From: Candidatus Aquabacterium excrementipullorum
GTDB lineage: Bacteria > Pseudomonadota > Gammaproteobacteria > Burkholderiales > Burkholderiaceae_C
NCBI GenBank assembly: GCA_019112875.1
Contig: DXIO01000038.1
Coordinates: 1-58,572 of the forward strand
Direction of reading: 5' to 3'
Length of the DNA stretch: 58,572 nucleotides
Every line of letters begins with the position of its first letter. Position 1 is the stretch's first letter. This document shows positions 18,318 to 28,412 of the stretch, piece after piece. The translations under genes were made by a program, and so were the position numbers. The notes under the pieces are model-generated. The model had not been told where the DNA came from. It did no database searches and saw nothing but the letters and a program-made list of their open reading frames with translations.

Positions 18318-20507
18318 TCAGAACGAGAAGGTGGCCGACACGCGCACCGTGCGCGGCGACGACAGGGTGGCGAAGCCATCACTGAACACATTGGCCCAGT
18401 AGCTCTTGTCTTCCACGTTCTCGACCGTGGCGCGGAACACCACCGGCTGCGAGGCGATCTTCGTGTCGTACTTGCCACCCAGGTCCAGGCGCGTCCATGA
18501 GGGCAGGCGCAGCTTGTTGGCCGAATCCAGCCACTGCTCCCCCACGCGGTTGACGCGGCCGTTCAGGCTCAGGCCCTGCACCGGGGTCTGCCAGTCGGCG
18601 CCCAGCACCAGGGCCTGCGTCGGCACGCCGATCACGCCCTTGCCGGTGGTGGTGGCCGAAGCCGTGCGCACATATTCGGCATGCGTGTAGCTGTAGCCAC
18701 CCAGCAGGCTCAGGTCGCGCAGCACGCGGCCGGAGAAGTTCCACTCGGCGCCCTTGTGGCGCTGTTCGCCATCGGTCGTCATCGTGGGCTGGCTGTTGCC
18801 TGCGTAGGTCACGGCGATGGCCGACGGCTTGGTGATCTGGAACAGGCTCACGGTGTGGGTGAAATCGCCCTGGCGCAGCTTCACGCCCACCTCGCTTTGC
18901 TTGGTCTTGTAGGGCGACAGGCTGGTGCCGGAGTTGGTGTAACCCGTGGCCACCGTGGTGCCCGGCGACAAGCCTTCGATGTGGTTGCCGTAGAACGAGA
19001 CCTTGTCGCCCCAGGGCTTGTAGACCACGGCCAGCGCCGGCGTCACGGTGGACTTGTCGTACTTCGACGAGGCCAGGCTCGACGAGGGATTGGACTGGTC
19101 CACCTGCTGCAGGCGCGCGCCCAGCGTCAGCAGCACCTTCTCGTCGAAAAGGTGCAGCGTATCGGCCAGGGCCAGGCCGTTGTACTCGTCGTCACGCGTC
19201 TGCGGCACGGTCGTCGGCGCGGCCGGGAACTGCGGCGACACGGGGTTGTAGATGTTCTGCGTCCAGCCGGTGCGCGCCACGTTGGCGTTCCAGTACTCGT
19301 ACTGCATGGTCGACACCGAGGCCGTCAGCGCGTGCTTCACGCCCCAGGTGTTCACATCCGCCTTGATCCCCGCCTCGGCCGTGCGCGTGTGCGAGATGTT
19401 GGCCAGGTTGTAGACGTAACCGTTGGCATTGCCGTTGTCGTTGGTCAGGATCACGCGGGTGCCGAACAGCAGGCCGTGCGAACTGGACTCGGCCGCGCCG
19501 AAGGTGGCGTAGGCCGTGACGTTGTCGGCCAGTTCCACATCGGCCCGAACCGCCAGCCCGTTCGATTCGGATTCGCCATGCGTGCCGCGGAACATGTTGG
19601 TGTCCGAGTCCGGCGGCGTCACCAGGTGGCCCAGCGTGGTCATCTGGTACATGCCGGGGCTGCCGTTGTTGATGTTTTCCTTGTTGGCATAGGCATCCAG
19701 CGTCAGCTTCCAGCCGCTGCCCTGGTAATCCAGGCCCAGCGCGCCCAGGCGGCGCTGCTTCTGCTGGTCTTCCACGCCGGTACCGCCGCCGCCGTACACG
19801 CCATTGACGCGCACGCCCAGGCGCTGGTCGTCACCGAAGCGGCGACCCACGTCCAGCTGCACCTGCCCATAGGAGCCCGATGAATACGAGGTGGTCAGTT
19901 CGGTCAGCGGCACGCTGCCGGCCCGCTTGGGCACCAGGTTGATCATGCCGCCCACATTGCCGTTGGGCGACATGCCGCCCAGCAGCGCGTTCGGGCCCTT
20001 GAGCAGCTCGATGCGCTCCAGGAACTCCACCGCCACATGCTGAGCCGGCAGCAGGCCGTACAAGCCGTTGAGCGCCAGGTCGTTGGAGGCGACGTCGAAG
20101 CCGCGCACGGTGAAGTTCTCCACCATGTGACCACCGTTGGAGGTGTACTGCACCGACGGGTCGTTGAGCAGCACGTCGGCCACGGTGCGGGCGTTCTGGT
20201 CCTTGATCTGCTCGACGGTGAAGCCGGTGATGTTGAAGGCCGCGTCCATCACGTCGGTGTTGCCCAGCACCCCCAGGCGAGCGCCAGTGGCCACCTTGCC
20301 GCCAGGCGCAGCGGGGGGCAGGCGGTCCTTGTCGGCCTTGCCTTTCACGACCACGGGGGGCAGCGTGTTGCCCTCCGCTGCGGTGGCGGCAGTGGAGGCT
20401 GTGGATTCAGTGGCTTGGGATTGCGCCAGCGCCGGCAGGGTGAGCGAGGCAACGAAAGACAGGCACGCCAGGGCGATCGCCGGGCGTTGGAGGCGGAGGT
20501 CGGACAT
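18318..20507 (-). CDS. TonB-dependent siderophore receptor
   Basis: 729 aa from the Met at 20507, giving a clean signal peptide (cleavage near LPALAQS). After a Thr/Ala-rich linker comes the plug domain (about 85-215, with TVADVLLNDPSVQ, NFTVRGFDV, IELLKGPNALLGG), then a 22-strand barrel ending in aromatic Phe (SATFSF). It is an outer-membrane receptor for a ferric siderophore, probably hydroxamate or catecholate; the ligand cannot be read from sequence. A Fur-type box lies about 53 bases upstream and membrane partners follow, so it heads an iron-regulated operon. Confidence 0.95.
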   Translation of the reverse strand: MSDLRLQRPAIALACLSFVASLTLPALAQSQATESTASTAATAAEGNTLPPVVVKGKADKDRLPPAAPGGKVATGARLGVLGNTDVMDAAFNITGFTVEQIKDQNARTVADVLLNDPSVQYTSNGGHMVENFTVRGFDVASNDLALNGLYGLLPAQHVAVEFLERIELLKGPNALLGGMSPNGNVGGMINLVPKRAGSVPLTELTTSYSSGSYGQVQLDVGRRFGDDQRLGVRVNGVYGGGGTGVEDQQKQRRLGALGLDYQGSGWKLTLDAYANKENINNGSPGMYQMTTLGHLVTPPDSDTNMFRGTHGESESNGLAVRADVELADNVTAYATFGAAESSSHGLLFGTRVILTNDNGNANGYVYNLANISHTRTAEAGIKADVNTWGVKHALTASVSTMQYEYWNANVARTGWTQNIYNPVSPQFPAAPTTVPQTRDDEYNGLALADTLHLFDEKVLLTLGARLQQVDQSNPSSSLASSKYDKSTVTPALAVVYKPWGDKVSFYGNHIEGLSPGTTVATGYTNSGTSLSPYKTKQSEVGVKLRQGDFTHTVSLFQITKPSAIAVTYAGNSQPTMTTDGEQRHKGAEWNFSGRVLRDLSLLGGYSYTHAEYVRTASATTTGKGVIGVPTQALVLGADWQTPVQGLSLNGRVNRVGEQWLDSANKLRLPSWTRLDLGGKYDTKIASQPVVFRATVENVEDKSYWANVFSDGFATLSSPRTVRVSATFSF

Positions 20508-20559
20508 CGGTTTGCAAAGAGATGCTGAACGGAAACCGGCGGATTCTATGATCAACGCG

Positions 20560-22557: not shown

Positions 22558-23775
22558 CTATCCCTTCACGCACAGCACCTGCTTGAGGGTGTAGACCACC
22601 TCCACCAGGTCCTTCTGCGCGGCCATCACGGCGTCGATGTCCTTGTAGGCCATCGGGATCTCGTCGATCACGGCATCGTCCTTGCGGCATTCCACGCCTT
22701 CGGTGGCCTTGATCTGGTCCTCCACCGTGAACAGCTTCTTGGCCTTGGTGCGGCTCATCACGCGGCCGGCGCCGTGGCTGCAGCTCTCGAAGCTCTCCGG
22801 GTTGCCCAGGCCGCGCACGATGTAGCTGCGCGCCCCCATGCTGCCCGGGATGATGCCCAGCTCGCCCTTCTTGGCGCTCACGGCGCCCTTGCGGGTCACA
22901 TAGACGTCTTCACCGAAGTGCGTTTCCTTCTGCACGTAGTTGTGGTGACAGTTCACCGCTTCCACGTGCGCCTCGAAAGGCTTGGTGATCACCTGGCGCA
23001 CCGTGGCCACCAGGTTCTTCATCATCACTTCGCGGTTCAGGCGCGCGAACTGCTGGGCCCAACCCACGCCGCGCACGTAGTCACCGAAGTACTGGGCACC
23101 TTCCTCGAAGTACGCCAGATCCTTGTCGGGCAGGTTGCGCTGGTGCAGCTCGGCATCCTTCTTGGCCAGCTCGATGAACATCGTGCCGATGGCATTGCCC
23201 ACGCCACGCGAACCCGAGTGCAGCATGAACCACACAGCGCCGCCTTCATCCAGACAGACCTCGATGAAGTGGTTGCCGGTACCGAGCGTTCCCAGGTGCT
23301 TGCGGTTGTTGGTGTTGCGCAGGCGCGGGTACTTCTCGCACAGGGCCTCGAAATCATCGACCAGCGTGGACCAGGCCTGGTCCACCAGATCAGGCGGGTT
23401 CTCCCAGCTCCCTTGGTCACGGCCACGGCGGTGCGGCGTCATGCCGTGCGGCACGGCGCGTTCGATGGCCGAGCGCAGCGGGCCGAGGTTGTCCGGCAGG
23501 TCTTCCGCACGCAGCGTGGTCTTGCAGGCGATCATCCCGCAGCCGATGTCCACGCCCACCGCGGCCGGGATGATGGCCTTGATGGTCGGGATTACCGAGC
23601 CCACCGTGGCACCGATGCCCAGGTGCACGTCCGGCATGGCGGCGATGTGCTTGAAGACCACGGGCAGGCGGGCAGCGTTGGCCAGCTGCTGGCGGGCCTC
23701 GGGCTCCACGGGCACGCCCTTGGTCCACATCTTGATGGGCACGGCGCCTTCTTGTTGTTCGAGGTTGTAGTTCAT
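22558..23775 (-). CDS. rtcB: RNA-splicing ligase RtcB
   Basis: 405 aa from the ATG at 23775; the longer open frame runs back into Y RNA sequence and is rejected. Metal and GTP-binding motifs are intact: GVDIGCGM, GTGNHFIEV, HSGSRGVGN, NCHHNYV and SCSHGAGRVMSR, which carries the guanylylated His. The enzyme joins 2',3'-cyclic phosphate or 3'-phosphate ends to 5'-OH ends of RNA using GTP and Mn2+. It lies directly after the two Y RNAs and before rlaP-rtcA. Confidence 0.97.
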   Translation of the reverse strand: MNYNLEQQEGAVPIKMWTKGVPVEPEARQQLANAARLPVVFKHIAAMPDVHLGIGATVGSVIPTIKAIIPAAVGVDIGCGMIACKTTLRAEDLPDNLGPLRSAIERAVPHGMTPHRRGRDQGSWENPPDLVDQAWSTLVDDFEALCEKYPRLRNTNNRKHLGTLGTGNHFIEVCLDEGGAVWFMLHSGSRGVGNAIGTMFIELAKKDAELHQRNLPDKDLAYFEEGAQYFGDYVRGVGWAQQFARLNREVMMKNLVATVRQVITKPFEAHVEAVNCHHNYVQKETHFGEDVYVTRKGAVSAKKGELGIIPGSMGARSYIVRGLGNPESFESCSHGAGRVMSRTKAKKLFTVEDQIKATEGVECRKDDAVIDEIPMAYKDIDAVMAAQKDLVEVVYTLKQVLCVKG

Positions 23776-23832: not shown

Positions 23833-23981
23833 GGGTGCCCCGTGGCGACAAGGGGTGGTGAAACGTTTTCGTGCTCTATCCACTGAGCTACGGTCCCCCA
23901 GTATTGGGACCGGCGGGAATCGAACCCGCGACCACGAGCGTTGGAGGCTGTAGTTCCACCGGCATTCGCCACGCGACACCC
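23833..23981 (-). ncRNA. yrlA: Bacterial Y RNA with tRNA-like module (YrlA-like)
   Basis: About 149 nt, read on the minus strand. The outer stem pairs GGGTG (23981-23977) with CACCC (23837-23833). Then CGTGGCGA (23973-23966) pairs with TCGCCACG (23848-23841). A bulge ATGCC / ACCCCTTG follows, then GGTGGAAC (23960-23953) pairs with GTTTCACC (23864-23857). This bulged helix is the expected Ro60/Rsr-binding stem. Distal to it is a circularly permuted tRNA. The T-arm GCGGG-TTCGATT-CCCGC (23929-23913) comes first. The acceptor stem CGGTCCC/GGGACCG (23912-23906, 23897-23891) is closed by an 8-base loop. The D-arm GCTC-AGTGGATA-GAGC (23888-23873) comes last. The Ro-binding stem takes the place of the anticodon arm. 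No CCA end or anticodon is present. This matches the architecture described for Salmonella YrlA. Confidence 0.88.
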
Positions 23982-23983
23982 TC

Positions 23984-24055
23984 AAAAAAGCGCGACAAGA
24001 GAGGCAAGACTTGCCTGTTTCCAGGCTCACGATGTAGTCCTGCCGGCATTCGCGC
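23984..24055 (-). ncRNA. yrlB: Small Y RNA (YrlB-like) with terminal T-tract
   Basis: About 72 nt on the minus strand, starting 12 bases after the rsr stop. GCGCGA (24055-24050) pairs with TCGCGC (23995-23990), a bulge ATGCC / TCTCTTG follows, and GGCAGGAC (24044-24037) pairs with GTCTTGCC. The distal part is a perfect hairpin GCCTG-GAAA-CAGGC. Six T follow the outer stem (23989-23984). The elements GCGA-ATGCC-GG..GGAAC-like-TACA and CTTG-TCGC are shared with the longer Y RNA next to it, identifying the common Ro-binding site. The T-run could serve as a terminator or pause, setting relative amounts of Y RNA and downstream rtcB. Confidence 0.82.
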
Positions 24056-24066
24056 AAAAACTCTGC

Positions 24067-25644
24067 TTACTGCGGCTCCAGCGAGACCTTGTCGATCTCG
24101 CCCACCCAGTGCTCGGCACCGGTCCGACCGTTCACGAAGGCGTTGACCATCTTGAACACCGCGTCCGAGAACCCACCGACATTCAGGATGTCGGCCCGGT
24201 CCAGGGCCTGCGTCGTCGCATACGGCTGGATGTCGATGCAAACCAGGCGGGCGTTCGGGTTGCGCCGCTTGATCAGGTCCCACTCCAGCATCGTCTGCGT
24301 CGCGCCATGGCGGCGGGCATCGATCCACGATTCGTTGTCCGATACGATGATCACCACGTCCACCTCGGCGCGCTCCTGGTTCAGCACGGCCAGGGGCGCG
24401 CTGCAGTTCGTGCCACCACCACCGATGCTGGCCAGCGCCTGTGCATTGCTCATCACCGAGTCACGCGGGTTCAGGTTCACCTTCACCACGCGCTGCTCGA
24501 AGGGCATCACACGGGCCTGGCGGTTCTTTCGCAGCACCGCCGCAGCCACCAGCGCCGCCACATCGATGCAACGCACCGAGGACGAGGCCGAGCCACGCTG
24601 GCCCGTCACGATCGACTGCATCGAGCCGGACACGTCAGGACACACCACCACACGGCCCTGCAGATCAGGCACATTGGCCAGCGCCAGCTCCATCGCGTCC
24701 TGCAGGGCCTCGCACACCTCGTGCGGCACACCGTCCTGGCTGGCCGCCTTGTAGGCCGACATCAGCTGGTAGGGCATCACACGCGCCTTGGCCACCGCCT
24801 TCGCATCACGCAGCTTGGCCGCCACCTGCCCGGCCATGCCGTCGATCTGGAACACGCCATGCCGCGCAAAGGTGTTCAGGTTCTGCCGCACCATCTGCCA
24901 CGAACCCTTTCGGGCGATGTCCGCCCACTGGGCAGGCACTAGCGGTAGGGCCGTCAGCATCTGGAAAGGCACGTCAGGCACCTCGGCGACCAGGCCTTGC
25001 GACTGCGCACGCTTGAACAACTCGAAGGCCTGCGTCACCGGGGGCAGCGCCTCCAGCACGTACGGCTTGCCGATCAACCAGGCGAACCAGGCCGCGCGCC
25101 AGGCCTCTGCAGGCTTGGGGTGCACCATCTTCACCACGTCGGCCAGCGAGGGCTCGTTGCCGATGCTGGCCTGCAGCAGTTGCTGCTCGGTGGCCTGGCA
25201 CAGCCAGTCTTGCACCAGCTTCTTGGGACGCGAGCCCAACGAACGGCGGCCCAGGGCCCCACTGCGCAGGATCTGCACGAAGTTGCGCAGCATCTTGCCG
25301 TTGTCGATCACGCGGCCGAACACCGTCTTCAACAGCGCCACGTCCTGCACCGCCAGGCTGGCGGCCAGCAGCGCCGGCATGTCCTTCATGAAACCAGCTT
25401 GGCGGGCATACACGGCAGTACGGGCCACGAACGAGGCGTCCACCTGGGCCAGCAAGGCCTTCACGTGGTCCAGCTGATCCTGGGCATTGGCATAGAAGGT
25501 GGTGCTCAGGCAACCGGTCGCCGCCAGCTGCGCCAATTGATGGCGAGGGCTGAAGGCGTAGGCCGGGGCCCGGCCGTGGTTCATGGCCTGCGCGGCCGGC
25601 AGCGCAGCGTGGCGCTGGGATTGGAAGAGTTGCGAGTTGACCAC
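24067..25644 (-). CDS. rsr: Ro60/TROVE domain RNA-binding protein Rsr
   Basis: 525 aa. The N-terminal TROVE region (about 20-325) is a ring of HEAT-like helices that binds Y RNA and misfolded RNA ends. It is followed by a von Willebrand A domain with a complete MIDAS (Asp337-x-Ser339-x-Ser341 in CPDVSGSMQS, GGGGTNCSAPL, VSDNESW). It is the bacterial orthologue of the Ro60 autoantigen and works with Y RNA and PNPase in RNA processing. It is the first gene of the operon rsr-Y RNAs-rtcB-rlaP-rtcA, driven by a sigma-54 promoter 50 bases upstream. Confidence 0.95.
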   Translation of the reverse strand: MVNSQLFQSQRHAALPAAQAMNHGRAPAYAFSPRHQLAQLAATGCLSTTFYANAQDQLDHVKALLAQVDASFVARTAVYARQAGFMKDMPALLAASLAVQDVALLKTVFGRVIDNGKMLRNFVQILRSGALGRRSLGSRPKKLVQDWLCQATEQQLLQASIGNEPSLADVVKMVHPKPAEAWRAAWFAWLIGKPYVLEALPPVTQAFELFKRAQSQGLVAEVPDVPFQMLTALPLVPAQWADIARKGSWQMVRQNLNTFARHGVFQIDGMAGQVAAKLRDAKAVAKARVMPYQLMSAYKAASQDGVPHEVCEALQDAMELALANVPDLQGRVVVCPDVSGSMQSIVTGQRGSASSSVRCIDVAALVAAAVLRKNRQARVMPFEQRVVKVNLNPRDSVMSNAQALASIGGGGTNCSAPLAVLNQERAEVDVVIIVSDNESWIDARRHGATQTMLEWDLIKRRNPNARLVCIDIQPYATTQALDRADILNVGGFSDAVFKMVNAFVNGRTGAEHWVGEIDKVSLEPQ

Positions 25645-25853: not shown

Positions 25854-27482
25854 ATGCGCAAGAAAACCGTCGTCATCGGCTTCCTGGGCTCCCAACTCGA
25901 TTCCGGGCAAGGCGCCGGCCGCTGGGAGAAGTGGCGTCCCACCGTCTCGCTCGCCCAACATGAAGACACGCTGATCGACCGCATCGAGCTGCTGCACACG
26001 CCCAAGCACACCACGCTGGCCCAGCGCGTGCGCGACGACATCCTGGCCTCGTCGCCCGACACCGTGGTCAAGCTCATTCCCATGGAGCTGGCCGACCCCT
26101 GGGACTTCGGCGAGGTCTATGCCGCCCTGTACGACTGGGTGCGCCACTACCCCTTCCAGCCCGAGCGCGAGCAGTACTGGACACACATCACCACCGGCAC
26201 GCACGTGGCGCAGATCTGCATGTTCCTGCTGGTGGAATCGCGCTTCATCCCAGGCGTGCTGCTGCAGACCTCGCCGCCCAAGCGCCAGACGCGCGACAAC
26301 CCCGGCAGCTACGCGCTGATCGACCTCGACCTGTCCCGCTACAACGTGCTGGCCCAGCGCTTCGAGCAGGAGCAGCAAGAGGCGGTGGACTTCCTCAAGA
26401 GCGGCATCGCCACGCGCAACGCCCGTTTCAACGCGCTGATCGACGAGATCGAGCGCGTGGCCGTGCGCTCGCAGGCGCCCATCCTGCTCACAGGCCCCAC
26501 CGGCGCGGGCAAATCGCACCTGGCGCGGCGCATGCACGAGCTCAAGAAGGCCCGCCACCAGGTGCGCGGCGAGTTCGTCGAGGTGAACTGCGCCACGCTG
26601 CAGGGCGATGGCGCGGCCTCCACCCTGTTCGGCCACAAGAAGGGCGCCTTCACCGGCGCGGTGACCGACCGCAGCGGCCTGCTGCGCACGGCCGATGGCG
26701 GCGTGCTCTTCCTGGACGAGATCGGCGAGCTGGGCCTGGACGAGCAGGCCATGCTGCTCAAGGCGATCGAGGACAAGCGCTTCTACCCCGTCGGCAGCGA
26801 CCGCGAAGTGAGCAGCGACTTCCAGCTCATGGCCGGCACCAACCGCGATCTGCGCATCGACGTGGCCCAAGGGCGCTTCCGCGAAGACCTCTACGCCCGC
26901 ATCAACATCTGGGCCTACGCCCTGCCCGGCCTGGCCCAGCGCCCCGAGGACATCGAGCCCAACATGGACCATCTGCTCGCGCGCTGCGGCAGCGAGATGG
27001 GCCGCGCCCTGCGCTTCAACGCCGAAGCCAAGGCCCTGTACATGCGCTTCGCCCAATCGCCCGAGGCCCTGTGGCTCGGCAACTTCCGGGATCTGTCGGC
27101 CAGCGTCACGCGCCTGGCCACGCTGGCCGAGGGCGGGCGCATCGGCACCAGCCTGGTTGAGGCCGAGCTGCAGCGCCTGCGTTGGCTGTGGGACCGGGGC
27201 GATGCCTCGCCCGGCGCGGATGACAACGCCACCAGCGCCATCGACCTGGCCCAGTGGCTCACGCCCGATCAGCTCGACCTGCTGGACCTGTTCGACCGCC
27301 TGCAACTGCAGGTCGTGCTGCAGGTGTGCGTGTCTGCCCGCACGCTGTCCGATGCCGGCCGCCAGCTGTTCGACCGCTCACGCACTCAGCGCAGCGTGGT
27401 CAACGATGCCGACCGCCTGCGCAAGTACCTGGCGCGCTTCGGCCTGACCTGGGCGCGCCTGTCGGCTCACAGACCCGCGTAG
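25854..27482 (+). CDS. rtcR: Sigma-54-dependent activator of RNA repair genes
   Basis: 542 aa. The N-terminal CARF-type sensor domain (about 1-180, VVIGFLGSQLDSG at the start) binds an RNA-damage ligand, in RtcR reported to be 2',3'-cyclic-phosphate-ended RNA. The AAA+ domain has Walker A GPTGAGKS (214-221), the sigma-54 contact loop GAFTGA (264-269) and Walker B VLFLDEI (284-290). The C-terminal part (about 470-540) ends in a helix-turn-helix region. It is divergent from the operon it is expected to switch on, whose promoter is sigma-54 type. Its end overlaps the convergent hydrolase gene by 16 bases. Confidence 0.96.
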   Translation: MRKKTVVIGFLGSQLDSGQGAGRWEKWRPTVSLAQHEDTLIDRIELLHTPKHTTLAQRVRDDILASSPDTVVKLIPMELADPWDFGEVYAALYDWVRHYPFQPEREQYWTHITTGTHVAQICMFLLVESRFIPGVLLQTSPPKRQTRDNPGSYALIDLDLSRYNVLAQRFEQEQQEAVDFLKSGIATRNARFNALIDEIERVAVRSQAPILLTGPTGAGKSHLARRMHELKKARHQVRGEFVEVNCATLQGDGAASTLFGHKKGAFTGAVTDRSGLLRTADGGVLFLDEIGELGLDEQAMLLKAIEDKRFYPVGSDREVSSDFQLMAGTNRDLRIDVAQGRFREDLYARINIWAYALPGLAQRPEDIEPNMDHLLARCGSEMGRALRFNAEAKALYMRFAQSPEALWLGNFRDLSASVTRLATLAEGGRIGTSLVEAELQRLRWLWDRGDASPGADDNATSAIDLAQWLTPDQLDLLDLFDRLQLQVVLQVCVSARTLSDAGRQLFDRSRTQRSVVNDADRLRKYLARFGLTWARLSAHRPA

Positions 27483-28261
27483 TCGATGAACCCCTTGTTG
27501 ATGGACGACAGCTTGCGCTGCAGGCGGTAGACACCGCCACCCTCGCGCGTCTGCGAGGCATCGGTGTTGCCTTCGATGGTGTGCAGGTAGCCGCCCTCGA
27601 TGCGCTCGATGATGCCCGTGTGGCCCAGCCCGCCGCCGAAATCCAGGATGAAGAGCATGCCGGGCTTGAGCAACCCCGGATCGCCCACCGCCTGGGCAGC
27701 CGGGATGCGGCGCGCGCCCTTCTTCTGCGCATTGTTCCAGTGCGCCAGGCAGCCGGCGGTGCGGAACATCGGGTTGTCGCGCCCCTTGGCCATGGCCACC
27801 TCGTCGAAGCACCAGTAGATGAAGGCGCAGCACCAGGCCAACCCGGGCGCCACGCCGGCACGACGCAGGTACACATCCACCTCAGGACCACGGTTGCTGT
27901 TCTTCGGCTGTTCGCGCACACCGGCATCGGCCTGCGAACCGGCCTTGGCGATCACGGCCGCCAGGAAGGCATCGGGCGCGTTCACCACCTGCGGCACCCG
28001 CTCGGCCCCGAACAGCGCCGCCCAGGTCAGCGAGCCCACCTCGCCATCGGTCTTGAGCGGCTGGCCCTGGTCGTCCACGTTGCGCGCCTGGAACAGCTGC
28101 ACGGCCTGCTTCATGCGCGGGCCGAAAAGCGGGTTGTCCGTGTCCAGCACGATGGCTTCGCCGCCGCGCAAGGCCAGAGCCTTGTTGAGCGCCGTCTTCA
28201 GCGCCTTGACGATGCGTGCATCGGCCTCGCCCACCTTGATGATGCGGCCTGGGTATTTCAT
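27467..28261 (-). CDS. Peptidoglycan-binding / CHAP-domain hydrolase
   Basis: 264 aa from the ATG at 28261, which has a good AGGGAGAGG ribosome site; a longer frame to 28309 lacks one. The N-terminal region (about 10-90) resembles a peptidoglycan-binding domain (PRMKQAVQLFQ, DGEVGSLTWAALF). The C-terminal region is CHAP/NlpC-like, with Cys in LAWCCAFIYWCFDE and His in LGHTGIIERI and the Asn of IEGNT. No signal peptide is seen, so it may need a holin, lysis or another export route, or act as an endolysin-like remnant. No phage genes are nearby. Confidence 0.8.
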   Translation of the reverse strand: MKYPGRIIKVGEADARIVKALKTALNKALALRGGEAIVLDTDNPLFGPRMKQAVQLFQARNVDDQGQPLKTDGEVGSLTWAALFGAERVPQVVNAPDAFLAAVIAKAGSQADAGVREQPKNSNRGPEVDVYLRRAGVAPGLAWCCAFIYWCFDEVAMAKGRDNPMFRTAGCLAHWNNAQKKGARRIPAAQAVGDPGLLKPGMLFILDFGGGLGHTGIIERIEGGYLHTIEGNTDASQTREGGGVYRLQRKLSSINKGFIDYAGL

Positions 28262-28412
28262 GTGCCTCTCCCTGTTGGCAACCTTGCGGAACTGCGCACC
28301 GATGCTCACCCAGCCCTCCCCAGCGGCACATCCCTGGCCTTAGGGATGCCAACCACCATCCGGCCGTGTCACCGACAATGCAGGCCCTGCCCTCTCACCG
28401 CTCCACCGTCCC

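What the first reader, a model, noticed from the sequence alone, without database searches (positions are those of the whole stretch)
23833..24055. Two Y RNAs between rsr and rtcB, one carrying a circularly permuted tRNA
Both RNAs share the same Ro-binding design (GCGA-ATGCC on the 5' strand, CTTG-TCGC on the 3' strand, an 8-bp inner helix). The longer one holds T-arm, capped acceptor stem and D-arm in permuted order, with the Ro stem in place of the anticodon arm. This matches the YrlB-YrlA order known from Salmonella, but here in a GC-rich betaproteobacterium-like genome, and could easily be missed or mis-called as a tRNA fragment. A T6 tract ends the first RNA.
Basis: partly seen in the sequence, partly recalled or inferred. 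Interest (0 to 1): 0.8.

Follow-up and report, generated by a model that had tools for sequence, protein, structure and literature searches.

The report
Y RNA containing a whole permuted tRNA
A bacterial RNA-repair operon carries two small Y RNAs, and the longer one looks like a whole tRNA cut open and re-closed, including an anticodon loop whose three letters change from species to species, so it may serve as a bait or sensor for enzymes that cut tRNAs.

Summary
In detail: two Y RNAs lie on the minus strand between rsr and rtcB (24055-23984 and 23981-23833). The longer is YrlA (Rfam RF02553, 75.7 bits, cut-off 69). Two interpretations need correcting. (1) The Ro stem does not replace the anticodon arm. 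A 5-bp anticodon stem with a 7-nt loop is there, and the Ro stem is inserted into its 5' strand between nucleotides 29 and 30. Rfam's model lacks this arm. Of 70 YrlA units parsed, 57 have all five pairs and 52 of these also U33 and a purine at 37; 500 shuffles reach at most 8 and 3. On an Rsr tree of 55 loci the triplet changes at least 30 times, U33 twice. The window's triplet is CCA. (2) The short RNA is not Rfam YrlB; it fits best a T-arm-bearing Y RNA class of relatives, with its T-arm missing. An enterobacterial contig also has a third Y RNA downstream of yrlA that Rfam lacks. Best reading: an unchargeable, four-armed tRNA mimic beside rtcB, rlaP and rtcA. Its use as decoy or sensor is inferred. 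Chen 2014 and Wang 2018 could not be read.

The parts
23844..23970 (-). YrlA core (127 nt); with the extended outer stem 23833-23981
   Evidence: RF02553 75.7 bits; model R2 135.3 bits
23935..23948 (-). anticodon arm, 5'-side part: nt 30-31 (23948-23947), 7-nt loop CTCCAAC (23946-23940, triplet CCA at 23944-23942), nt 39-43 (23939-23935)
   Evidence: insertion relative to the Rfam model
23869..23871 (-). anticodon stem nt 27-29 (CGA), paired with TCG at 23937-23935; the Ro stem is inserted between nt 29 and 30
23913..23929 (-). T-arm GCGGG-TTCGATT-CCCGC
23891..23912 (-). acceptor stem (7 bp) closed by the cap loop 23905-23898; no free end, no CCA
23873..23890 (-). U8-A9 and D-arm
23984..24055 (-). 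short Y RNA, 72 nt with T6 (23989-23984); outer stem GCGCGA/TCGCGC, 9-bp inner helix, capped hairpin GCCTG-GAAA-CAGGC (24026-24013); no T-arm
   Evidence: R1 53.9 bits, R3 40.4 bits, fold
24067..25644 (-). rsr (Ro60-like protein)
   Evidence: Pfam vWA_Ro60 71.5 bits and TROVE 26.8 bits, both over cut-off; NCBIfam Rsr model only 77 bits against a cut-off of 900
22558..23775 (-). rtcB
   Evidence: Pfam RtcB 426.8 bits
21678..22529 (-). rlaP
   Evidence: Pfam RlaP PF10127 325.6 bits
20632..21681 (-). rtcA
   Evidence: NCBIfam NF003246 415.1 bits; Pfam RTC 260 bits
25854..27482 (+). rtcR, divergent activator
   Evidence: NCBIfam RNA_repair_RtcR 815.7 bits; Pfam RtcR 278.6 bits
25695..25709 (-). 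sigma-54-like promoter TGGCACATCCGTTGC about 50 bp upstream of the listed rsr start
   Evidence: the only match without mismatch among 10 matches in the window; matches with up to 1 mismatch are no more than chance

Best explanation
The locus is an RtcR-type RNA-repair operon: rsr, two Y RNAs, rtcB, rlaP, rtcA. The longer Y RNA is a YrlA that forms a complete, circularly permuted tRNA body: T-arm, capped acceptor stem and D-arm follow each other, and the Ro-binding stem is inserted in the 5' strand of the anticodon stem (between positions 29 and 30), so that all four arms are kept, including a 7-nt loop with U33 and a purine at 37. Shown here by sequence and comparison: architecture, pairing, loop length, turnover of the triplet. 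Reported by others for relatives: Rsr and Y RNA direct PNPase; RtcR binds 5' tRNA pieces ending in 2',3'-cyclic phosphate. Inferred: since it cannot be charged yet shows a tRNA body and an anticodon loop, it is offered to tRNA-handling proteins, most likely as a decoy or repairable sensor for anticodon nucleases, with RtcB, RlaP and RtcA next door to reseal cut loops. The short RNA is a T-type Y RNA that lacks its T-arm and probably only offers the Ro-binding stem.
For: Arm: 57 of 70 parsed units have 5 bp and a 7-nt loop, 52 of these also U33 and R37; best of 500 shuffles 8 and 3. Selected by segment length only: 198 of 205 cells paired and 36 of 41 distinct arms full, against at most 175 and 20 in 2000 re-deals. 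Whole structure in 38 sequences: 99.2% of cells paired, 14 pairs with double changes, no shuffle of 500 as high. Tree: at least 30 triplet changes against 2 at position 33 and 5 at 37; pair 31-39 changes 14 times, always on both sides. Also outside the family: full arm in 6 of 14 loci, 6 of 7 genomes. Body: G18-G19 and A21 in 70 of 70, 15-48 pair in 69 of 70. Setting: rtcB, rlaP, rtcA, rtcR. Published suggestion that YrlA's tRNA-like domain competes for an anticodon nuclease (PMC7790460, passages).
Against: No expression, binding or cleavage data. RNAfold prefers another lower stem, ACUAC/GUGGU. Ten of 70 units lack the arm. Exact identity of loops with own tRNA loops is not above a column-shuffle null (4 of 25 distinct loops against 3.0, p 0.34; 3 of 29 arms against 1.1, p 0.08). 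Of the 6 full arms outside the family only 3 have both U33 and R37. Some triplets (ATT, ACT, ACA, TCA) are not among the anticodons read from the own genome. No PrrC-type ATPase (PF13166) was found in the own genome; other nucleases were not sought. In Salmonella, YrlA fragments were not seen when tRNAs were cut, though the enterobacterial YrlA tested here has no canonical arm (L111).
Confidence: 0.45

Rival explanations
1. Ordinary YrlA scaffold: the tRNA-like domain only docks PNPase or other partners, and the anticodon arm is a structural part whose triplet drifts freely.
For: Rsr and YrlA are reported to direct PNPase (PMC8394870, passage). The triplet turns over and is not tied to tRNA identity. 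Some YrlAs do without the arm (10 of 70).
Against: U33 and R37 are kept while the triplet between them changes, which plain stiffening does not demand.
Confidence: 0.4
2. The arm attracts tRNA-modifying enzymes or another anticodon-loop reader, and acts through modification rather than as nuclease bait.
For: YrlA is reported as a substrate of DusA and TruB (PMC8394870, passage). U33 and R37 are features that such readers may use (recalled).
Against: No modification of this loop is reported in the passages seen; the operon genes are cutting-repair genes.
Confidence: 0.1
3. The 13-nt insertion is a plain hairpin extended by ACUAC/GUGGU, with no relation to an anticodon arm.
For: This is the minimum-energy fold of the window and of two of the three relatives folded with it.
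Against: GUGGU is not kept: in 38 sequences column 38 is T 26, G 10, A 2 and column 39 is G 33, T 5. ACUACA recurs in T-type and S-type Y RNAs that have no such partner. The 27-29/41-43 pairs hold and the alternative would also take two pairs of the inner Ro helix that hold.
Confidence: 0.08
4. Degenerate tandem tRNA genes, not a Y RNA.
For: Tandem tRNA-Lys genes do give weak RF02553 hits: the four that I read (L097, L098, L099, L102; 40.5-44.4 bits) are such pairs.
Against: 75.7 and 135.3 bits lie far above that; the acceptor strands pair and covary; the position between rsr and rtcB recurs.
Confidence: 0.01

Closest known systems
YrlA (Rfam RF02553), bacterial Y RNA with tRNA-like domain
   Same: Ro-binding stem, permuted T-arm, capped acceptor, D-arm, place in rsr-rtcB operon
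   Different: the Rfam model has no anticodon loop; here a full 5-bp, 7-nt arm with the Ro stem inserted in its 5' strand. The enterobacterial YrlA in L111 has no such canonical arm
YrlB (Rfam RF02565)
   Same: short Y RNA upstream of YrlA with the same Ro motifs
   Different: the short RNA of the window gives no match, while L111 scores 105.5 bits; it fits the T-type class better
tmRNA and permuted tmRNA (RF00023, RF04321)
   Same: tRNA-like part; sub-threshold local matches to the T-arm region, 18.9 and 25.1 bits against cut-offs of 47
   Different: Ro stem, capped acceptor and operon are those of a Y RNA; only the T-arm stretch (with its neighbour in RF04321) matches
tRNA
   Same: all four arms, U8-A14, G18-G19, A21, T-loop, 7-nt anticodon loop
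   Different: ends lie in the Ro stem, acceptor end is a closed loop without CCA, order permuted; ARAGORN sees nothing in the native order

Membership tests
YrlA (RF02553) | covariance score over the gathering score | tested here: met
   75.7 against 69 bits
YrlA (RF02553) | gene next to a Ro60 orthologue | tested here: met
   rsr 24067-25644: vWA_Ro60 and TROVE over Pfam cut-offs; NCBIfam equivalog cut-off not reached
YrlA (RF02553) | tRNA-like domain with D, T and acceptor arms | tested here: met
YrlA (RF02553) | stable transcript bound by Rsr, tethering PNPase | not testable with these tools
   no RNA or binding data
YrlB (RF02565), for the short RNA | covariance match to the family | tested here: not met
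   no RF02565 row among matches up to E 10
T-type Y RNA class as defined here, for the short RNA | best covariance score with the T-type model | tested here: met
   R1 53.9 bits against R3 40.4 bits; R1 also gives lower matches to other Y RNAs, so it is not class-specific
T-type Y RNA class as defined here, for the short RNA | T-arm next to a capped hairpin | tested here: not met
   hairpin present, T-arm absent
tRNA with an anticodon arm | 5-bp stem, 7-nt loop, U33, R37 | tested here: met
   window: CGAGC-CTCCAAC-GCTCG
functional tRNA | free acceptor end with CCA | tested here: not met
   acceptor closed by an 8-nt loop
RNA-repair operon with RtcR | rtcB and rtcA with divergent rtcR | tested here: met

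The most novel reading that the evidence does not exclude
In this lineage YrlA is a four-armed, permuted, unchargeable tRNA whose exchangeable anticodon loop is bait and sensor for anticodon nucleases: the triplet turns over because attackers change, and a cut YrlA is resealed by the neighbouring RtcB, RlaP and RtcA or feeds the RtcR alarm.
Probability: 0.25. Interest if true: 0.85.

Novelty: new variant of a known kind. Interest (0 to 1): 0.6.

Why it matters
[quoted passage not shown] A YrlA with a real anticodon arm makes the decoy or sensor idea testable by removing or swapping a 17-nt arm. It is also a natural case of a protein-binding stem inserted inside a tRNA arm, and it shows that the Rfam models cover only part of these RNAs.

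Tried and rejected
Rotated YrlA units given to ARAGORN: 62 of 70 called, 59 with a 3-nt anticodon, the window as Trp(CCA). Kept only as illustration, because with the arm segment shuffled 31-41 of 70 are still called with a 3-nt anticodon (20 shuffles).

Identity of loops with real tRNA loops: exact matches are not above a column-shuffle null (4 of 25 distinct 7-mers against 3.0, p 0.34, in which the tRNA-Glu loop was lost by a parsing slip and 13 tRNA places were not yet fetched). Repeated with 39 own tRNA sequences: exact 3 of 29 against 1.1 (p 0.08); within one mismatch 12 of 29 against 6.9 (p 0.01); mean distance 1.66 against 2.12 (0 of 3000 as low). The variants share descent, so I do not lean on the last two.

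Weak RF02553 hits: 56 of 150 family genomes at E 0.001, 10 over the cut-off. Four weak ones that I read are tandem tRNA-Lys genes, so sub-threshold hits were not counted.

No relative of Rsr confirmed in IMG/VR with the window's protein; distant Rsr in 199 annotated phage records and 70 plasmid records, not followed up except two contigs. No match of the Limnobaculum locus in E. coli genomes. No PF13166 in the own genome. Paper searches that listed no report of an anticodon arm in YrlA: (listings only, apart from the passages cited). Not held: Chen 2014, Wang 2018, Sim and Wolin 2018, the 2020 review, NAR gkw722.

Full report
OBSERVATION. On the minus strand the window reads rsr (25644-24067), a short RNA (24055-23984), a longer RNA (23981-23833), rtcB (23775-22558), rlaP (22529-21678) and rtcA (21681-20632); rtcR is divergent at 25854-27482. 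A sigma-54-like site without mismatch faces rsr about 50 bp upstream of its listed start. The longer RNA is the only Rfam match of the window over gathering score: YrlA, 75.7 bits. ARAGORN finds no tRNA. The own genome gives no further copy.

RELATIVES. One scan with Rsr gave 80 loci, mostly Burkholderiales by record title. A script that looks for the Ro motifs and the inner helix found Y RNA units downstream of rsr. Over 81 loci with the window, the number up to rtcB is 0 in 7, 1 in 9, 2 in 14, 3 in 24, 4 in 26 and 5 in 1. This is a pattern count: in five loci the limit was set by hand, where rtcB was not recognised it was 1,400 nt, and a zero is not absence (L052 and L071 have T- and D-arm motifs that the script did not join). 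Four kinds recur: a long one of about 95 nt, a short one of about 57 nt (S), a T-type of about 92 nt and YrlA. The T-type has a T-arm beside a capped hairpin and no D-arm. TTTT within 14 nt downstream: 36 of 45 T-types, 0 of 56 S, 7 of 30 long ones, 19 of 70 YrlAs.

THE SHORT RNA. Models built without the window give 53.9 bits (T-type) and 40.4 bits (S-type). Rfam YrlB gives no match; the same family scores 105.5 bits in L111. Its GCGCGA outer stem, GGCAGGAC inner strand and T-tract are those of T-types, but the T-arm is missing. I call it a reduced T-type; this is a comparison of scores between models of different length, and the T-type model also matches other Y RNAs at lower score, so descent is not proved.

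THE LONG RNA HAS FOUR ARMS. Against the Rfam model the window has a 13-nt insertion between the Ro stem and the T-arm. Read with the three bases that follow the D-arm and A26 it makes an anticodon arm: C27-G28-A29 (23871-23869), then, across the inserted Ro stem, G30-C31, loop CTCCAAC, G39-C40-T41-C42-G43, then TGGTC. In alignment A3 (38 sequences, window included) the whole structure has 99.2% of cells paired, 14 pairs with double changes and a covariation score of 0.200 against 0.086 in shuffles, none of 500 as high; slid versions pair 36-45% of cells. Pair 31-39 is CG 22, AT 14, GC 1, one gap. In this alignment four of the five arm pairs do not covary by themselves.

TESTS OF THE ARM. 71 YrlA-type units, window included, were taken by motif; one could not be parsed. 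Of 70, 57 have five pairs and a 7-nt loop and 52 of these U33 and R37; over 500 shuffles of the segment the best counts were 8 and 3. Three more have four pairs. Ten do not show the arm, among them units of Pseudomonas, Limnobaculum, Sphingomonas and extra or odd copies in Diaphorobacter, Variovorax and Hydrogenophaga. Among 49 distinct segments 37 are full and 33 also have U33 and R37. A second test chose units only by segment length: 104 units, 80 with 19 nt, 41 distinct arms, 198 of 205 cells paired, 36 of 41 full; re-dealing the 3' letters gave at most 175 and 20 in 2000. There pairs 27-43, 30-40 and 31-39 occur in two or three Watson-Crick forms. The 104 overlap between named and unnamed records; distinct arms were counted. 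Outside the family, 14 loci from 7 genomes: 6 have the full arm, from 6 genomes; 3 of the 6 have both U33 and R37; one locus, L152, could not be parsed.

EVOLUTION OF THE LOOP. On an Rsr protein tree of 55 loci chosen for at least four pairs, minimum changes are 19, 18 and 17 at positions 34, 35 and 36 and 30 for the triplet, against 2 at 33, 5 at 37, 8 at 32 and 17 at 38; pair 31-39 changes 14 times, always on both sides. Columns side by side on one tree are their own control for relatedness. Triplets: CTT 20, CCA 7, TCT 6, ATT 6, GTC 3, TCA 3, TTC 2, TGG 2 and six others once. ATT, ACT, ACA and TCA are not among the anticodons read from the own genome. The loop thus keeps anticodon-loop rules, not a tRNA identity. 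Concerted changes may partly be block exchange between YrlA genes.

OTHER tRNA FEATURES. G18-G19 and A21 are in 70 of 70, a G15-C48 or A15-U48 pair in 69 of 70. U8, A14, U54-U55-C56, R57 and A58 were part of the search motif, so their 70 of 70 is by construction.

CAUTIONS. RNAfold prefers another lower stem, ACUAC/GUGGU, in the window and in two of three relatives, but GUGGU is not kept. ARAGORN on rotated units is too permissive to count.

DISTRIBUTION. With the four-arm model, 29 of 299 genomes of the family, the own one included, have a match of 75 bits or more; the next is 58.5 bits (counted from the listing; not all were read). The three other genomes of the genus in that listing have none. 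The system is patchy.

A THIRD ENTEROBACTERIAL Y RNA. The contig labelled Salmonella phage (L111, probably host DNA; the same 361-nt stretch is in L112) has YrlB, YrlA and, before rtcB, a further unit at 926-1032 that folds into a Ro stem, a T-arm and a capped hairpin, with one more small hairpin (z -2.92). It matches R1 (29.6 bits, E 1.5e-5) and R2 (38.5 bits); its likeness to the T-type rests on layout. Rfam lists only YrlB and YrlA there, and the passages read name only these two.

MECHANISM. From passages read: Rsr and YrlA alter PNPase specificity (PMC8394870); RtcR binds 5' tRNA pieces with a 2',3'-cyclic phosphate and YrlA's tRNA-like domain may be a competitive inhibitor of the nuclease (PMC7790460); RlaP is predicted to restore nucleotides lost at cut anticodon loops (PMC7824862). 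An anticodon arm on YrlA in this operon fits a bait or sensor that the operon can repair. That last step is inference.

NOVELTY. Permuted tRNA-like Y RNAs are known (Chen 2014, Wang 2018: recalled and cited by others, texts not held). I recall no description of a canonical anticodon arm; the Rfam model lacks one; a review passage lists D, T and acceptor arms. A figure legend there says that parts of YrlA are coloured like tRNA, anticodon arm in the code, so an arm-like element in Salmonella YrlA may have been noted. The paper searches listed no such report. I file it as a new variant of a known kind.

Noticed in passing
L111:926-1032 (OR851267.1, labelled Salmonella phage): Third Y RNA-like unit between yrlA and rtcB, with Ro stem, T-arm and capped hairpin; no Rfam family lists it.
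   Followed up: partly
L002-L081, rsr-rtcB gap: Arrays of up to five Y RNAs of four recurrent kinds; long, S and T kinds had no Rfam match in the window's case and look undescribed in Rfam.
   Followed up: partly
L076:6562-6711 and L079:6842-6998: Sphingomonadales Y RNA units of 150-157 nt with a shared GACGAGT..AAAGCGC insert before the T-arm; unexplained.
   Followed up: no
L097, L098, L099, L102: Tandem tRNA-Lys genes score 40-44 bits with RF02553 because T-arm, acceptor and D-arm of neighbours imitate the permuted order; a source of false YrlA calls below the cut-off.
   Followed up: yes
L067, L068 (Cardiobacterium hominis): Two rsr genes in one chromosome, with no Y RNA found downstream of either by the script.
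   Followed up: no
window 27467-28309 (-) and 18318-20555 (-): Neighbouring ORFs that by eye look like a CHAP-type/peptidoglycan-binding protein and a TonB-dependent receptor; no search was run.
   Followed up: no
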